A stretch of DNA of 64,000 nucleotides from Solirubrobacterales bacterium (GTDB taxonomy: Bacteria; Actinomycetota; Thermoleophilia; Solirubrobacterales; Solirubrobacteraceae), in the NCBI GenBank assembly GCA_003133565.1, contig PKYB01000042.1:10053-74052 (forward strand), written 5' to 3'. This document shows, piece by piece, positions 52,269-62,675 of the stretch (within the stretch, counting starts at the first letter, position 1; each line of letters begins with the position of its first letter). The notes under the pieces were generated by a model, which worked only from the letters and a program-made list of their open reading frames with translations, did no database searches and was not told the origin of the DNA. The translations under genes and the position numbers were made by a program.

Positions 52269-53138
52269 TCAGCCTGGCGGACCGCCGATCGCGGGCGGCG
52301 TGACGCCGAAAGTGATGCGGTAGTCGCAGCCACCGGCGCAGGTGAACACGCTCGTGGCGTTGTCGCCCGACCACGAGTAGGCGTAGGGCTCGGCGCGCTT
52401 GAAGACTCGCGCATAGTCGATCGGCCACGTTGTAGCCGGCGAGCAGCCCTGGGCGTAGGGGCCCCTGCAGCAATAGCGATCGGTGCCAAACCGTGCGCAC
52501 GGTGAGATGCAGCCGACGAGCTGGCCGCCGCGGCGAACGCGCAGTGCAGCGGGGCACTTGACGGTGGAGGTGCAGCCGTGGCCCTGCTCACAGCCGTTGG
52601 CGGAAATCCGGTTCTTCGTCAGGCCGTGACTAATCCTGATGTACATCGGCAAGTTGGAGCCATCGACCATCGACACGTCGTAGAAGTCGAGATGGTCGTA
52701 GGAGTCCATGTCGTACTCGGCCAGCGTGGCGGGAATCTGGCCCCAGCCCTGGCACTGGTAGAGCCCGCCACAATCGCCGGTCACGCAGCTGCCGTGGCCA
52801 GCGGCGTCGAAGTGACAGCCGGTTCGACCCCACAGACGCGCGTTCCAGGTATCGGAAACGGTGAGCGAGAGCGACTTACCCGGCGGGAGCGTCCAGCCGG
52901 TCGTGCCGGAGACCGAGCCCGGCCACGCGGCGGGCCAGATCGTCTCCCGAGTCCGGTTGACGAGCGTAAGCGTGCGGTCGCTGGCGGTCGCCGACCTCGG
53001 CGCGGCTCCGTGCGCAGCGACGGCGCTCGCCGCGGTGGCGGTCCCGGTCAGCGTCGGGAGGCTGTCGGCGAACAGCTGCGGCGACAGCCCAGCAGCCAGC
53101 AGCACGACCAGAAGGACGGTACGCCAAGTCCGCGCCAC
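52269..53138 (-). CDS. secreted thaumatin-like protein (GH64/TLP fold family)
   Basis: Signal peptide; LTLVNRTRETIWPAAWPG, ARLWGRTGCHFDAAGHGSCVTGDCGGLYQCQGWGQIPATLAEYDMDSYDHLDFYDVSMVDGSNLPM, CSPATTWPIDYARVFKRAEPYAYSWSGDNATSVFTCAGGCDYRITF, with multiple cysteines. Confidence 0.9.
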   Translation of the reverse strand: MARTWRTVLLVVLLAAGLSPQLFADSLPTLTGTATAASAVAAHGAAPRSATASDRTLTLVNRTRETIWPAAWPGSVSGTTGWTLPPGKSLSLTVSDTWNARLWGRTGCHFDAAGHGSCVTGDCGGLYQCQGWGQIPATLAEYDMDSYDHLDFYDVSMVDGSNLPMYIRISHGLTKNRISANGCEQGHGCTSTVKCPAALRVRRGGQLVGCISPCARFGTDRYCCRGPYAQGCSPATTWPIDYARVFKRAEPYAYSWSGDNATSVFTCAGGCDYRITFGVTPPAIGGPPG

Positions 53139-53531: not shown

Positions 53532-53640
53532 AAGATGGGGAGCGACGAAGCCCAATCTGGGGGGTCTTCCCGTTGTGCGCGCGCGAGTGAGCGCGTAACT
53601 TGGCGGCATGCAAAGTCGTCACTCGTCCAGGGGGAGCGAG
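53532..53640 (+). promoter_or_regulatory. duplicated upstream element, copy 1 (aagatggggag ... ccaatctgggg..tcttcccg ... gcatg ... SD)
   Basis: Blocks match 59154-59263 at identical relative offsets (0, 20, 33, 74 nt); start codon at offset 109 versus 110. Confidence 0.75.
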
Positions 53641-53939
53641 ATGTTCAAGTCGATCAAGCGGCTAAGCGGCTGCTGATTGTGGCGATGGTGATCCTCACGG
53701 CCACCGCACCGCCCGCTGCCTACTCCCTTATGCCCGCGGCGTCAGCCGGAGGACTTTCGACCGGCGGCCAGGCGCAGCCGTCGATCGTCTCTTGGGTTCC
53801 CCGTGCGACGGCGTCCTCGCCCCAGCGGTTCCAGTGGAGTGATGCGGGCGTCGGCGCGCTAGGGACTCTGGCGGTTGTTGGGATTGGCTCGGGCGTCGCC
53901 GTTGTGGTCCGCCGCCGGGCGCAACCGATCGGGGGCTGA
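53641..53939 (+). CDS. small secreted/membrane 'FQW-DAG' protein, copy 1 (frame junction near the start unresolved)
   Basis: RLLIVAMVILTATAPPAAYSLMPAASAGG...FQWSDAGVGALGTLAVVGIGSGVAVVVRRRAQPIGG. The SD-linked ATG at 53641 is in a different frame (MFKSIKRLSGC stop) from the 53535-53939 ORF. Confidence 0.6.
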
Positions 53940-56937: not shown

Positions 56938-57876
56938 GTGGACGAGCTTCAACTGGTTACGGCGCTGAGCCCGCACTACTCTCCGGCGCGCAAGCGTCGA
57001 TCGGCGCGCCCGCTTTTTCGCATCGCCGCGTTGCAGCAGCGCTGGCATTCGGACGCGGACGAGCACGCTGCGGCACTTGAGGCGGGAATCCGTCTCGCCG
57101 CCGGCGAGGGCGCGCAGCTTGTCTGCCTGCCCGAGCTCACGCTGAGTCGGTATTTCGCCGTCGATCCGGCTGGTCCGGCGGGAGCGGGGGTCGAGCCAGA
57201 GGATCTTCCCGGTGGACCGACGTATCGCTTTGCCGCGCGCCTCGCGCGCGAGGCCGACATCCACGTGCACGCGTCGCTGTTTGAGCGAGCGGATGGCGCG
57301 GACGGGCTCGGGTTCAACACGGCGATTGTCGTCGCACCCGATGGTGCGCTGATCGCGCGCACGCGGAAACTGCACATTCCGGTGACCGCGGGCTACCACG
57401 AGGACCGCTATTTCCGGCCGGGTCCGGGGGGTTCGGACGCCTTTCCAGTGCTCGGGCTCGGCGGCGCCCAGCTCGGCGTGCCGACCTGCTGGGATCAGTG
57501 GTTCCCTGAGGTCGCGCGGGCCTACAGCCTTGCCGGAGCCGACGTGCTCGTATACGCGACTGCGATCGGCTCCGAGCCTGATCACCCGGACTTCGATACG
57601 CAGCCGCTGTGGGAGAAGGTGATCCTCGGCAACGGGATCGCGAACGGCGTCTTTATGGTGGCGGTCAACCGGTTCGGCGAGGAGCCGCCGCTGCATTTTT
57701 ACGGCTCGTCGTTCATCTCCGACCCCTACGGGCGCAAGCTTGTTGAAGCGCCGCGCGATGCGGCCGCGCTGCTCGTCGCCGAGCTGGATCTCGATCAGCG
57801 ACGCGACTGGCTCGAGCTATTTCCCTTCCTGACCACGCGGCGGCCGGACGCATATAGCACGCTCGCCGACCAATGA
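56938..57876 (+). CDS. aguB: carbon-nitrogen hydrolase, N-carbamoylputrescine amidase-like
   Basis: LVCLPELTLSRYF (Glu), RKLHIPVTAGYHEDRYFRPG (Lys), GVPTCWDQWFPEVARAYSLAGADVLVYATAIG (Cys). Confidence 0.88.
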   Translation: MDELQLVTALSPHYSPARKRRSARPLFRIAALQQRWHSDADEHAAALEAGIRLAAGEGAQLVCLPELTLSRYFAVDPAGPAGAGVEPEDLPGGPTYRFAARLAREADIHVHASLFERADGADGLGFNTAIVVAPDGALIARTRKLHIPVTAGYHEDRYFRPGPGGSDAFPVLGLGGAQLGVPTCWDQWFPEVARAYSLAGADVLVYATAIGSEPDHPDFDTQPLWEKVILGNGIANGVFMVAVNRFGEEPPLHFYGSSFISDPYGRKLVEAPRDAAALLVAELDLDQRRDWLELFPFLTTRRPDAYSTLADQ

Positions 57877-57954
57877 GGTGATCGTCGTGCGCTATCTGGG
57901 CTGGCCGCTACGACGGCCCGCGAGCCTCAGGGTGCGCTCGACGCGCGCGGCGCG

Positions 57955-59067
57955 ATGAGCACCACGGTCGACTCGACGCCCCTCGCCGACGGGTACCGCA
58001 TGCCGGGCGAGTTCGAGCCGCACTCGGGCTGCTGGATGGCTTGGCCGGAACGCCCCGACAACTGGCGCTGGGGCGCCAAGCCGGCCCAGCAGGCCTATGT
58101 CGCCGTCGCGGAGGCGATCAACGTGGACGAGCCGGTCACGATGGCGGTCTCAGACGCCCAGTTCGAGCATGCCCGGTCCGTGCTCTCACCGTCGATCCGC
58201 GTCGTCGAGATGTCGACCAACGACGCGTGGATCCGCGACACGGGGCCCACGTTCGTCATCGACGGAGGTGGCGGTCGTCGCGGCATCGACTGGCACTTCA
58301 ACGCCTGGGGCGGTCTCGAAGGGGGGCTCTACTTTCCCTGGGACCGCGATGAGCGCGTGGCACGCAAGGTCCTCGAGATAGAGGGCGCCGACCGCTACCA
58401 AGCGCCGATCGTGCTCGAGGGCGGCTCGATCCATGTCGACGGCCAGGGCACCGCGCTCACAACCGAGGAGTGCCTGCTCAACCCCAATCGCAATCCCGAG
58501 CTCTCGCGGAAAGCGATCGAGCAGACCCTTCACGCATACCTCGCGGTCAAGAAAGTCATATGGCTTGACCGCGGCGTCTTCAACGACGAGACGAATGGTC
58601 ATATCGACAACCTCGCCTGCTTCGTTCGTCCCGGAGTCGTACTGCTCACGTGGACCGACGACGAGTCCGACCCCCAGCACCAGATATCGAGCGATGCCCT
58701 CCGGCGCCTTGAAACAGCCACCGACGCGCAGGGCCGGTCGTTGGAGGTCGTACGGATACCCTCGCCGGGCCCGATCCTCATCACCGCTGAGGAGGCTGTC
58801 GGCGTAGATGCCGTGCAAGGGACGATGCCGCGCCGTGCCGGAGACCGCCTAGCGGGGTCCTACGCCAACTTCTACCTCGGCACAACCCGCATCGTCTTCC
58901 CGCTGCTCGACGAGCGAACCGACGATGCTGCCGCCGAGATCCTTCGCGGGTGCTTCCCGGATCGCGAGGTAGTAGGTGTCCCGGCACGCGAGATCCTGCT
59001 CGGCGGCGGCAACATCCACTGCATCACCCAGCAAGTCCCCGCCGTTGCCCAACTCGCCCGCACCTGA
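57955..59067 (+). CDS. aguA: agmatine deiminase (porphyromonas-type peptidylarginine deiminase family)
   Basis: [86 protein letters not shown]. Confidence 0.95.
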
Positions 59068-59153: not shown

Positions 59154-59263
59154 AAGATGGGGAGTGGCGGCTTCCAATCTGGGGACTCTTCCCGATGCGC
59201 CCGGTCAGGTTGGCTCGTAGCTTTGTTGCATGCCGAGTGGCGAAGTCAAACGGGAGGAGCGAT
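59154..59263 (+). promoter_or_regulatory. duplicated upstream element, copy 2
   Basis: aagatggggagtggcggcttccaatctggggactcttcccgatgcgc...ttgcatgc...gggaggagc; compare 53532-53640. Confidence 0.75.
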
Positions 59264-59536
59264 ATGTCGCGATACGTGGTACAGCGCACGTTTCCGGAGG
59301 GGTTGCAAATTCCGGTGGCAGACGGTGGGGCGGAGCTCTGCCGCGGGGTCGTCGAGCGGAACGCCGAGGACGGCGTGACGTGGATCTGCTCGTTCGTCAG
59401 TGAGGACAGGACCCGGACGTTCTGCGTCTATGACGCACCGACACCTGAGGCGATCCGCAGGACCGCAGCTCGCAACGAGCTTCCGGTCGACGAGATCACC
59501 CGGGTGAGCGTATTGGATCCCTATTTCTACGCGTGA
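59264..59536 (+). CDS. DUF4242-like (SCO4226 nickel-binding-type) small protein
   Basis: MSRYVVQRTFPEGL...VTWICSFVSEDRTRTFCVYDAPTPEAIRRTAARNELPVDEITRVSVLDPYFY. Confidence 0.8.
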   Translation: MSRYVVQRTFPEGLQIPVADGGAELCRGVVERNAEDGVTWICSFVSEDRTRTFCVYDAPTPEAIRRTAARNELPVDEITRVSVLDPYFYA

Positions 59537-59550
59537 ACGAGGAGAACGAC

Positions 59551-59847
59551 ATGTACAGGCACAATCTGATCAGACGCGGGCTGGCTGGTGGTCTTGTGAT
59601 CGCGGCGGCGAGTTTTCCAGCGGCGGCGCAAGCGAGGTTTTTCGAGAATTCGGGGCGGGCCGTGAGTCCGATCGCAGCGGTGGCGCACACCACGGGCGTG
59701 CCGTCTCGCCAGGCCGGGGCTGCCACGCAGTCTGGGTTCCAGTGGGGCGACGCCGGCATCGGCGCGGCCGGAACGCTCGTGTTGCTTGGCGCGGGCGCCT
59801 CGGTGGTCGGACGTCGACGCCGCGGTCAGCGTCTCGTCGTCGGCTGA
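59551..59847 (+). CDS. small secreted/membrane 'FQW-DAG' protein, copy 2
   Basis: MYRHNLIRRGLAGGLVIAAASFPAAAQARF...SGFQWGDAGIGAAGTLVLLGAGASVVGRRRRGQRLVVG; SD gaggag precedes ATG at 59551. Confidence 0.75.
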   Translation: MYRHNLIRRGLAGGLVIAAASFPAAAQARFFENSGRAVSPIAAVAHTTGVPSRQAGAATQSGFQWGDAGIGAAGTLVLLGAGASVVGRRRRGQRLVVG

Positions 59848-59975: not shown

Positions 59976-62675
59976 ATGAGCTTCGATGTGCCTGATCCAA
60001 GCGACGCGCTGCTCGAGCGCGACGAGAGCATGCTCGTCCTCGATGAGCTTCTCACGCGAGTGCGATCGACCTCGGTTGGCCAGCTGGTGCTCGTGAGGGG
60101 TGAGGCGGGCGTCGGCAAGACGGCGCTCATCCGGCGCTTCTGCGAAGCGCAACGTGACCGGGTACGCATTCTGTGGGGTGGGTGTCAGCCGGTGCGAACG
60201 CCTCGCCCGCTCGGGCCGCTCATCGACATTGCCGAAGCGACTGGCGGGGAGCTCGAGCAGCTGGTCGGGCTAGCTGCTACCCCTCATGCGGTTGCCACCC
60301 AGCTGCTCCGCGAGTTGCGAAGCCGCGGACCGTCGGTACTGGTGCTTGAGGATCTGCATTGGGCGGACGAGGCCACGCTCGACGTGCTCATCGTCCTCGC
60401 GGCGAGGATCGATTCGGCGCCCGCGCTCGTGCTGGCGAGCTATCGCGATGACGAGCTCGACCGCGCCGAGCAACTTCGCCTTGTGCTCGGCGATCTGGTG
60501 AGCCGGCCACGGCGGCTCAAGGTCGAATCGCTATCTGAAACCGCGGTCGTCGAGCTGGCTCAGTCGTACGGGGTCGACGGTCACGAGTTACATCGCCGGA
60601 CAGCTGGCAACCCGTTCTTCGTTAGCGAGGTGTTAGCGGCGGGCGGGGCGGAGATTCCCGAGACCGTGCGCGACGCTGTTCTTGCACGCGCAGCGCGCCT
60701 GCCTGGCAGAGCGCGCAGGCTGCTAGACGTTGCGGCAGTCGTCCCTGGGCAGATCGATATGTGGCTGCTGGAGGCGCTCGCCGGCGAGCTCGTTGACGAG
60801 CTTGAGGAGTGCCTAGCGTCAGGCATGCTGAGCGCCCGTGCGACGCACGTCGCCTTCCGCCACGAGCTGGCGCGTCTGGCGATCGAAGAGGCGATTGCGC
60901 CCAACCGCAGGATCGTGCTCCAGCGCCGCGCGCTTGGCGTGCTTGTCGATCGTGGCGGCGAGGATCCCGATCTCGCGCGTCTTGCCTATCACGCGGAGGC
61001 GGCCGGGGATGTTCAGAGCGTGTTGCGGTGGGCGCCGCTTGCGGGCGAGCACGCTGCGTCCTCGGGTGCCCATCGTGAAGCGGCCGCGCAGTACGCGCGG
61101 GCGGTCAGGTTCGCCGACGGGCTGTCGCTGCAAGGGCGCGCGGAGCTGCTGCAGCGCCGCGCCGATGAGTGCTACACGACCGACCAGTTCGCGGCGGCGA
61201 TCGAAGCCCAGGAGGCTGCGCTCGATCTGCAGCGGAGCCTCGGAAGCACTCTCGGGGAGGGCGACGCGCTGCGGTCGCTGTCACGACTACTGCGGTTCGT
61301 CGGCCGGACCAGCGATGCTCAGGCGGCGGCGGTTGAGGCTGTTGGAATGCTCGAGCGGCTACCGCCGGGCCACGAACTCGCGATCGCGTACGGCAACTTG
61401 TCGCACCTTTGCATGAACAGGGAAGACGCTGGGGGGGCGCGGGCGTGGGGAACTCGCGCGCTTGAGCTCGCGGAACGCTTGGATGACGATGAGGCGCTTG
61501 TTTACGCGCTTACGAATATTGGTGTCGTCGATTTTTTGGCGGGCGCGGCTGAAGGGACCGTGGAGCTCGAGCGTGCCCTGACACTCGCGCAGCGGCACGG
61601 TTTTGAGGAGCACGCTGGTCGGTCGTTCGTCAGCCTGGTCTTGTGGCCGTTGCGGCATCGCATGTTCGCCGTCGCGGACCGCTATCTCGTGGCGGGACTC
61701 GAGTACTGCAGCGAGCGCGGTCTTGACACCTGGCGGCTTTACCTGATCGCGTGCCGTGCTCGCCTCGAGTTGGATCTTGGACGCTGGAGTGAGGCGGCTG
61801 ACTCAGCCTCCTTGGTCCTCCGCGATCCGCGCAGCGCGCCCGTTCCACGCGGCTGGGCGCTGGCCGTGCTCGGACTTGTCAGGGCACGGCGCGGCGACCC
61901 CGGGGCATCCGACCCGCTCGACGCCGCGCGCACGCTCGTGCAGTCCACGGGCGAGCTCCAGTGCATCGCGCCGGTCGCGGCGGCGAGAGCCGAGGCGGCT
62001 TGGCTGAGAGGGGAGGACGCGATCGTGGATGAGGAGACGGAGTCGGCGCTTGAGCTTGCGCTGCACCGCCGATCAGCATGGGTTGTGAGCGAGCTCGCCT
62101 ACTGGCGCTGGCGTGCGGGTATGAGCGACGCGCATCTACCCGGCGTAGCTGCGACGCCTTACGGCCTGTCGCTCACCGGTGAATGGGCACGCGCCGCCGA
62201 GCTGTGGACACAGATCGGCTGCCCATACGAGGCGGCGCTCGCGCTGGCCGACGGCGACGATCAGCCCGCGCTGCGTCAGGCGATCGATGACCTACACGGG
62301 CTGGGTGCCCGCCCGGCGGCCGCGATCGTGGCTCGGCGACTCCGCGAGCGCGGCGTCCGTGGCCTGCCGCGCGGTCCACGTCCACAAACGCGCCACAATC
62401 CGGCAGGCCTCACCGCACGCGAACTCGAGGTGCTCGCATGCCTGACCGAAGGCCTCCGCAACGCCCAGATCGCTCAGCGACTGGTCGTGTCCGAGAAAAC
62501 CGTCGATCACCACGTCTCCGCGGTACTGCGAAAGCTTGACGTTCGAAGCCGGGGCGAAGCTGGAGCAGCAGCGCTACGGCTCGGGCTCACCCAGCACGCT
62601 GGGGAGCCAGAAGCCAAACGTAGCCTGGGGTTCGAGCCCTCGCTCGAGAACGAAAGCCGGCGACAGCGGGCCTGA
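59976..62675 (+). CDS. large LuxR-family (LAL-type) ATPase transcriptional regulator, copy 2
   Basis: Walker A VLVRGEAGVGKTALIRRF, Walker B SVLVLEDLHWADEATLDVL, C-terminal HTH LTARELEVLACLTEGLRNAQIAQRLVVSEKTVDHHVSAVLRKLDVRSR; clear paralog of 53943-56663. Confidence 0.95.
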   Translation: MSFDVPDPSDALLERDESMLVLDELLTRVRSTSVGQLVLVRGEAGVGKTALIRRFCEAQRDRVRILWGGCQPVRTPRPLGPLIDIAEATGGELEQLVGLAATPHAVATQLLRELRSRGPSVLVLEDLHWADEATLDVLIVLAARIDSAPALVLASYRDDELDRAEQLRLVLGDLVSRPRRLKVESLSETAVVELAQSYGVDGHELHRRTAGNPFFVSEVLAAGGAEIPETVRDAVLARAARLPGRARRLLDVAAVVPGQIDMWLLEALAGELVDELEECLASGMLSARATHVAFRHELARLAIEEAIAPNRRIVLQRRALGVLVDRGGEDPDLARLAYHAEAAGDVQSVLRWAPLAGEHAASSGAHREAAAQYARAVRFADGLSLQGRAELLQRRADECYTTDQFAAAIEAQEAALDLQRSLGSTLGEGDALRSLSRLLRFVGRTSDAQAAAVEAVGMLERLPPGHELAIAYGNLSHLCMNREDAGGARAWGTRALELAERLDDDEALVYALTNIGVVDFLAGAAEGTVELERALTLAQRHGFEEHAGRSFVSLVLWPLRHRMFAVADRYLVAGLEYCSERGLDTWRLYLIACRARLELDLGRWSEAADSASLVLRDPRSAPVPRGWALAVLGLVRARRGDPGASDPLDAARTLVQSTGELQCIAPVAAARAEAAWLRGEDAIVDEETESALELALHRRSAWVVSELAYWRWRAGMSDAHLPGVAATPYGLSLTGEWARAAELWTQIGCPYEAALALADGDDQPALRQAIDDLHGLGARPAAAIVARRLRERGVRGLPRGPRPQTRHNPAGLTARELEVLACLTEGLRNAQIAQRLVVSEKTVDHHVSAVLRKLDVRSRGEAGAAALRLGLTQHAGEPEAKRSLGFEPSLENESRRQRA

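What the first reader, a model, noticed from the sequence alone, without database searches (positions are those of the whole stretch)
53532..53640. Non-coding element conserved upstream of both modules with near-identical spacing
aagatggggag, ccaatctgggg, tcttcccg and gcatg occur at offsets 0, 20, 33 and 74 in both copies (53532 and 59154), with the start codon at 109 versus 110, although the first downstream gene differs. TGGGGA/TGGGGG recurs 22 bp apart (about two helical turns) in each copy, suggesting tandem half-sites, possibly for the LAL regulators themselves.
Basis: partly seen in the sequence, partly recalled or inferred. Interest (0 to 1): 0.75.

Follow-up and report, generated by a model that had tools for sequence, protein, structure and literature searches.

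The report
Conserved switch site for LAL regulators
The repeated stretch is very probably an activator-dependent promoter: a three-part landing site for a poorly studied family of large ATP-binding gene regulators, whose 22-base spacing is kept in bacteria from several phyla, so it can be used to find what those regulators control.

Summary
Two 80-bp elements (53532 and 59154) are 73% identical, and identity falls to background on both sides, although the linked LAL regulators are only 53% identical. The element reads as an activator-dependent promoter: an upstream half-site (AAGATGGGGA), then 22 bp downstream an inverted repeat TGGGGA-N4-TCCCGAT centred at about -42.5, a TAnCTT -10 box 21 bp later, and a predicted start at the A of the conserved GCATG.

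Loci fetched by LAL protein similarity alone carry the same operator beside the LAL gene: 58 inverted-repeat matches against 2 for the reversed control. Pairs of AT[AG]GG[GT]A within 60 bp lie at exactly 22 bp in 10 of 12 cases (control 0), in four phyla. The -10 box occurs only at 21-22 bp (20 of 28 sites). The next gene is often a SCO4226-like (DUF4242) protein, a methyltransferase or a small membrane protein. HD-LuxR regulators use the same inverted repeat without a clear upstream half-site.

This is a new operator variant for the MalT/LAL kind of activator, with positional precedents in Actinoplanes MalT and TpdR. Binding and start sites are inferred, not measured.

The parts
53532..53542 (+). 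Upstream half-site AAGATGGGGAG, copy 1 (TGGGGA centre about -69.5 from the predicted start)
   Evidence: Identical in both copies; half-site at offset 20-23 from the inverted repeat in 15 of 28 LAL-linked sites, 1 match at all other offsets
53552..53574 (+). Operator inverted repeat, copy 1: CCAATC-TGGGGG-GTCT-TCCCGTT (core 53558-53574, centre -42.5)
   Evidence: Same repeat beside LAL genes elsewhere; reversed-motif control near zero
53596..53601 (+). Predicted -10 box TAACTT, copy 1; predicted start A at 53608
   Evidence: TAnnnT occurs only 21-22 bp after the repeat in 20 of 28 LAL sites; GCATG conserved
53641..53939 (+). Small secreted one-TM protein, module 1; the frame from ATG 53641 is shifted by an 8-bp tandem duplication (53656-53663 / 53664-53671)
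   Evidence: ORF list and comparison with the small protein of L059
53943..56663 (+). LAL1: AAA ATPase (STAND-type) plus C-terminal LuxR HTH regulator
   Evidence: Pfam AAA_16 3.2e-21, GerE 1.4e-18
59154..59164 (+). Upstream half-site AAGATGGGGAG, copy 2
59174..59196 (+). Operator inverted repeat, copy 2: CCAATC-TGGGGA-CTCT-TCCCGAT
59218..59223 (+). Predicted -10 box TAGCTT, copy 2; predicted start A at 59230
59264..59536 (+). SCO4226-like (DUF4242, PF14026) protein, first gene of module 2
   Evidence: Pfam 4.5e-19 on the longer frame 59195-59533
59551..59847 (+). Small secreted one-TM protein (FQWGDAGIGAAG...RRRR), counterpart of the first gene of module 1
   Evidence: ORF list; no Pfam or NCBIfam family
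59976..62675 (+). LAL2 regulator, 53% identical to LAL1; recognition-helix segment SEKTVDHHVSA[IV]LRKL[ND]VRSRGEA shared

Best explanation
The element is an activator-dependent promoter read from about -75 to +1. Its operator is the binding site of the LAL (large ATP-binding, STAND-type LuxR) regulators encoded at the end of each module. In the active, oligomeric state the regulator would place two LuxR helix-turn-helix domains on the inverted repeat TGGGGA-N4/5-TCCCGAT at about -42.5, where the site takes the place of a -35 box. A further domain would sit on the half-site 22 bp (two turns) upstream on the same face. It would then recruit RNA polymerase to the TAnCTT -10 box 21-22 bp downstream. 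Each module would thus be autoregulated, together with its small secreted protein and, in module 2, the SCO4226-like protein. Because the two regulators share the recognition helix, they probably cross-regulate. Shown here: the sequence anatomy, its fixed spacing, its absence outside the element and its linkage to LuxR-HTH genes in other genomes. Inferred: binding, oligomer stoichiometry, positive control, start site and cross-regulation.
For: Conservation is confined to 80 bp upstream of the start codons while the regulators are 53% identical. Flanks of 83 LAL genes found by protein similarity hold 58 inverted-repeat matches of at least 12/14, against 2 for the reversed motif. At 13/14 or better there are 16 against 0. 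Half-site pairs AT[AG]GG[GT]A in all LAL loci: 10 of 12 at exactly 22 bp, control 0. TAnnnT is found only at 21-22 bp after the repeat (20 of 28). Whole-genome DNA pattern scans gave 10 sites in 399 class genomes (control 0) and 12 in 397 phylum genomes (control 1). Of the 17 with the TCCCGAT arm, 16 lie beside a LuxR-HTH gene (L153 partly by direct reading), where about 3% would be expected from GerE gene density. No sigma-70-like -35/-10 pair was found in the region. Positional precedent: the Actinoplanes MalT-like LAL operator ends 34.4 +/- 1.0 nt before mapped starts and overlaps -35 (PMC7567727); here the repeat ends at -34 in copy 1.
Against: No start site or binding was measured. The window genome is an incomplete assembly with two sites only. 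Several LAL homologues have no recognisable site in the flanks searched. The inverted repeat is shared with HD-LuxR regulators, so it is not LAL-specific. In some LAL sites (L052, L063, L068) the upstream half-site is not recognisable. The rules for scoring sites were set after seeing the first examples.
Confidence: 0.82

Rival explanations
1. The similarity is a remnant of a duplication of the module, with no functional constraint on the element.
For: Both modules hold a small secreted protein and a LAL gene in the same order, so they are related by descent or by two acquisitions of the same module.
Against: Identity is at background immediately upstream of offset 0 and in the leader and first codons, while offsets 0-80 stay at 73%. 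LAL1 is no closer to LAL2 (53%) than to homologues in other genomes (52-53%), so the divergence is old. The same operator occurs beside LAL genes in other phyla.
Confidence: 0.04
2. The element is a promoter operator, but the protein that binds it is another LuxR/NarL-type regulator of the cell, not the adjacent LALs.
For: HD-LuxR regulators carry the same inverted repeat beside their own gene, and this genome has 17 GerE-domain proteins.
Against: Sites follow the LAL genes in genomes of several phyla and lie beside them. A half-site match of 6/7 or better occurs in 15 of 28 LAL-linked sites and 0 of 7 HD-LuxR-linked sites.
Confidence: 0.1
3. The inverted repeat works as an RNA structure (leader hairpin or terminator) rather than a protein site.
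For: The repeat could form a short stem on either strand; authors of a related promoter (P-TTMP) proposed a hairpin (PMC6099782).
Against: With the conserved -10 box 21-22 bp downstream it lies upstream of the predicted start and would not be transcribed. Several sites precede leaderless ATGs directly at the predicted start (L012, L032). No Rfam match. The 22-bp direct half-site is not explained by a hairpin.
Confidence: 0.03

Closest known systems
MalT-like LAL regulator ACSP50_3915 of Actinoplanes sp. SE50/110 (PMC7567727)
   Same: LAL-type activator; inverted-repeat operator overlapping -35, ending 34.4 +/- 1.0 nt before mapped starts
   Different: Repeat is TCATCC-5 nt-GGATGA (opposite arm polarity, different bases); no upstream half-site at 22 bp described in the passages read; other target genes
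TpdR / P-TTMP of Rhodococcus jostii TMP1 (PMC6099782)
   Same: LAL activator; direct repeats (TnnAAnnGCGGAnTC) plus 7-nt inverted repeats separated by 4 nt at -45 to -28; deletion in the upstream copy abolishes activity
   Different: Direct repeats 28 nt apart, not 22; different bases; degradation genes as targets
E. coli MalT (PMC10427625; site description in PMC7567727)
   Same: STAND/LAL activator that binds DNA cooperatively as an oligomer; asymmetric G-rich sites in direct repeat
   Different: MalT box GGA(T/G)GA is not the motif here; inverted-repeat arm is absent from the MalT box description
ComA of Bacillus subtilis (PMC4797271)
   Same: LuxR/NarL-type HTH; inverted repeat with optimal 4-nt, tolerated 5-nt spacer, plus extra recognition element at the promoter
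   Different: Two-component regulator, TTGCGG elements, direct repeat with 5-nt spacer downstream of the palindrome
PAS-LuxR (PimM-type) box CTVGGGAWWTCCCBAG (PMC9774167)
   Same: GGGA/TCCC arms of a LuxR-type HTH, at -35
   Different: 2-nt rather than 4-5-nt spacer between GGGA and TCCC; no tandem half-site; PAS domain, no ATPase
LipR box of Streptomyces exfoliatus (Evangelista-Martinez et al. 2006, PMC1636227; cited in PMC5715377)
   Same: By its title, a conserved inverted repeat through which a STAND activator works
   Different: Paper not held, so the box could not be compared

Membership tests
LAL / STAND-LuxR regulator (LAL1, LAL2) | Large protein (about 900 aa) with N-terminal AAA/NTPase domain and C-terminal LuxR HTH | tested here: met
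   AAA_16 and GerE above Pfam cut-offs in both
LAL / STAND-LuxR regulator (LAL1, LAL2) | Walker A motif | tested here: met
   GEAGIGKTAL / GEAGVGKTAL in the translations
MalT itself (NCBIfam NF003420) | Whole-protein score above the curated cut-off (537 bits) | tested here: not met
   32.8 and 41.8 bits, HTH region only
MalT box operator | GGA(T/G)GA core hexamer in direct repeat | tested here: not met
   The conserved blocks read GGGGAG/GGGG, no GGATGA or GGAGGA in the blocks
PAS-LuxR box | GGGA-N2-TCCC spacing | tested here: not met
   Spacer is 4 or 5 nt in all aligned sites
Activator-dependent (class II type) promoter | Operator overlapping -35 at fixed distance from -10, no -35 box | tested here: met
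   TAnnnT only at 21-22 bp after the repeat in LAL sites; no sigma-70 pair found
Activator-dependent (class II type) promoter | Mapped start site and activator-dependent transcription | not testable with these tools
   Needs RNA and binding data
LipR box | Sequence of the inverted repeat | not testable with these tools
   Paper not held

The most novel reading that the evidence does not exclude
A clade of STAND-LuxR regulators shares one operator code across Actinomycetota, Bacteroidota, Chloroflexota and Proteobacteria: an AT[AG]GGGA half-site repeated at exactly 22 bp, the promoter-proximal copy often completed to a palindrome. With it comes a recurrent target, a SCO4226-like (DUF4242) protein. 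The pair would be an undescribed signalling module in which a ring-like activator reads DNA with a fixed two-turn geometry.
Probability: 0.5. Interest if true: 0.72.

Novelty: new variant of a known kind. Interest (0 to 1): 0.58.

Why it matters
LAL regulators are widespread but described as poorly studied (PMC3282765), and for most of them neither binding site nor target is known. An operator with a strict 22-bp geometry, recognisable from sequence and kept across phyla, gives direct predictions of targets (SCO4226-like proteins, methyltransferases, small membrane proteins). It also offers a simple test of how an oligomeric STAND activator engages DNA.

Tried and rejected
Strict two-block pattern in 60 relatives: only the own genome matched. 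That looked like refutation until LAL homologues were fetched by protein and their flanks read. Rfam found only two tRNAs in the window. The consensus sigma-70 scan found no promoter. Pattern hits L027, L028, L030 and L033 look like coding-sequence matches, because the site lies inside an open frame or at a start codon with no LuxR gene nearby. Five fully palindromic ATGGGGA-N4-TCCCCAT hits (L136-L138, L144, L146) have no LuxR neighbour and were set aside as another system. The LipR box paper is not held. Literature searches for the motif itself returned nothing relevant. A duplication remnant was considered and rejected. No structure prediction was run, because the question is the DNA site.

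Full report
Observation. The two copies were read directly. All four blocks are at the stated offsets, and the start codons are at 53641 and 59264. A combined pattern with three mismatches allowed finds only these two places in the window (0.03 expected) and in the assembly. At the fixed offset, identity is 14, 18, 11 and 15 of 20 in the four bins from 0 to 79, and 2-8 of 20 everywhere else from -160 to +200. The conservation is therefore a discrete 80-bp unit, not the edge of a duplicated block.

Anatomy. The blocks make sense together. The second block and tcttcccg form an inverted repeat, TGGGGA-CTCT-TCCCGAT in copy 2 and TGGGGG-GTCT-TCCCGTT in copy 1. The first block is one more left arm, 22 bp upstream. 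A TAACTT or TAGCTT hexamer starts 21 bp after the repeat, and six bases later comes the A of the conserved GCATG, a plausible start (53608 and 59230). On that reading the repeat is centred at -42.5, the half-site at -69.5, and the leader is 33-34 nt with a GGGGGA or GGAGGA ribosome site. No consensus -35/-10 pair was found in the region.

Genes. Each element heads an operon that ends in a LAL regulator: AAA_16 plus GerE, 53% identical to each other, with the same recognition segment SEKTVDHHVSA[IV]LRKL. Module 1 is small secreted protein then LAL1. Module 2 is a SCO4226-like protein (PF14026), a homologous-looking small secreted protein, then LAL2. This explains why the first downstream gene differs. 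LAL1 is as far from LAL2 (53%) as from homologues in two other genomes (53 and 52%), so the two modules diverged long ago.

Related loci found by protein only. LAL homologues were fetched from relatives and from GTDB genomes, and the flanks were then scanned. With the palindromic consensus ATNGGGA-N4/5-TCCCNAT, 16 sites of at least 13/14 were found against none for the reversed motif, nearly all within 0.9 kb of the LAL gene. At 12/14 or better the flanks give 58 against 2; palindromic sites can count on both strands, so about half that number are separate places. In L008 (G052) and L012 (G031) the site lies just downstream of the LAL gene, before a small secreted protein and a methyltransferase respectively.

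Spacing. Around 28 LAL-linked sites, a half-site of at least 6/7 occurs at offset 20-23 in 15, and once at all other offsets from 8 to 80. TAnnnT occurs at 21 or 22 bp after the repeat in 20, and at no other offset from 12 to 31. Independently of the palindrome, all pairs of AT[AG]GG[GT]A within 60 bp in the protein-found LAL loci were counted: 12 pairs, 10 at exactly 22 bp, 1 at 23, 1 at 18; the reversed motif gave none. These pairs come from Bacteroidota (Spirosoma, Dyadobacter, Mucilaginibacter and an uncultured member), a Rhodobacteraceae MAG, a Ktedonobacterales MAG, Cellulomonas, Microbacterium and Solirubrobacteraceae. In the Bacteroidota the right arm is weak, and the site is a plain direct repeat, as for MalT. 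Directly downstream of these pairs lie SCO4226-like genes in Spirosoma and Dyadobacter (Pfam), and proteins that look like the same family by eye in several others.

Related loci found by DNA only. Scans for TGGGGA-N4/5-TCCCGAT-N20-23-TANNNT gave 10 sites in 399 class genomes with no control hit. A related pattern gave 12 in 397 phylum genomes with one control hit. Sixteen of the seventeen sites with the TCCCGAT arm lie beside a LuxR-HTH gene. For L153 the upstream regulator is inferred by reading the C-terminal codons. With 12-56 GerE genes per genome, about 3% would be expected by chance within 2 kb. Some neighbours are not LALs but HD-domain LuxR proteins (HD_5 plus GerE) followed by a methyltransferase gene. 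Their sites have the same repeat and -10 spacing but no half-site match of 6/7 or better (0 of 7 against 15 of 28). With a looser half-site threshold (5/7) the difference is not significant (23/28 against 4/7, Fisher p 0.31), so this contrast is suggestive only.

Mechanism. MalT is an ATP- and inducer-dependent STAND protein that oligomerises and binds several sites cooperatively (PMC10427625). The Actinoplanes MalT-like activator uses an inverted repeat ending 34.4 +/- 1.0 nt before mapped starts (PMC7567727). TpdR needs an upstream direct repeat in addition to a repeat overlapping -35 (PMC6099782). ComA shows that a LuxR-type HTH prefers a 4-nt spacer, tolerates 5, and uses an extra recognition element (PMC4797271). 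The element here combines these features with its own bases and spacing. The best reading is a class II-like activator site with an added upstream half-site for the LAL oligomer, giving autoregulation and probably cross-regulation of the two modules. Binding, polarity of control and start sites remain inference.

Limits. The assembly is incomplete and fragmented; same-genus genomes lack close LAL homologues, so the module may be horizontally acquired. Site-scoring rules were refined on early examples, although the reversed-motif controls and the spacing histograms used the same rules. Some LAL homologues have no recognisable site in the flanks searched. The LipR box, possibly the nearest published sequence, could not be read.

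Verdict. The site is a new variant of the known LAL operator kind, notable for a strict two-turn spacing kept across phyla and for a recurrent SCO4226-like target.

Noticed in passing
window 53656-53671: An 8-bp tandem duplication (aagcggct twice) shifts the frame of the small secreted protein of module 1 just after its start; relatives such as L059 read through. Real mutation, slippage switch or assembly error cannot be told apart.
   Followed up: partly
L060, L066, L070, L071, L075, L081, L091, L092, L044: SCO4226-like (DUF4242) genes, or by-eye members, sit beside LAL genes in Bacteroidota, Gammaproteobacteria, Chloroflexota and Actinomycetota; the pairing itself looks ancient.
   Followed up: partly
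L045, L047, L048, L149, L151, L154: HD_5 plus LuxR-HTH proteins are followed directly by ATGGGGAG-N2-CTCCCGAT, a -10 box at 21-22 bp and (where read) a methyltransferase gene: an apparently separate regulator class with the same operator.
   Followed up: partly
L138, L144, L146 (one genome), L136, L137: Perfect palindromes ATGGGGA-N4-TCCCCAT with a -10-like box, three within 8 kb in one genome, without a LuxR gene nearby.
   Followed up: no
L044 (G404): Another genome with two LAL genes in tandem, each followed by its own operator with an AAGATCGGTA box upstream; one drives an S8-peptidase-like gene, the other a SCO4226-like gene.
   Followed up: partly
window 56938-59067: A carbon-nitrogen hydrolase and a PAD_porph (agmatine deiminase type) gene lie between the two LAL modules, a possible polyamine pair.
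   Followed up: no
window 52269-53138 (minus strand): A bacterial thaumatin-family protein (Pfam 9.4e-59) upstream of module 1.
   Followed up: no
L104, L107, L118, L119, L132, L134, L135: Streptomyces LAL homologues carry a divergent operator (CCTAAGGCCCC then AAGATGCGGAACTNNCCCGATG) before a short MFDYE...-type protein; its spacing rule was not worked out.
   Followed up: no
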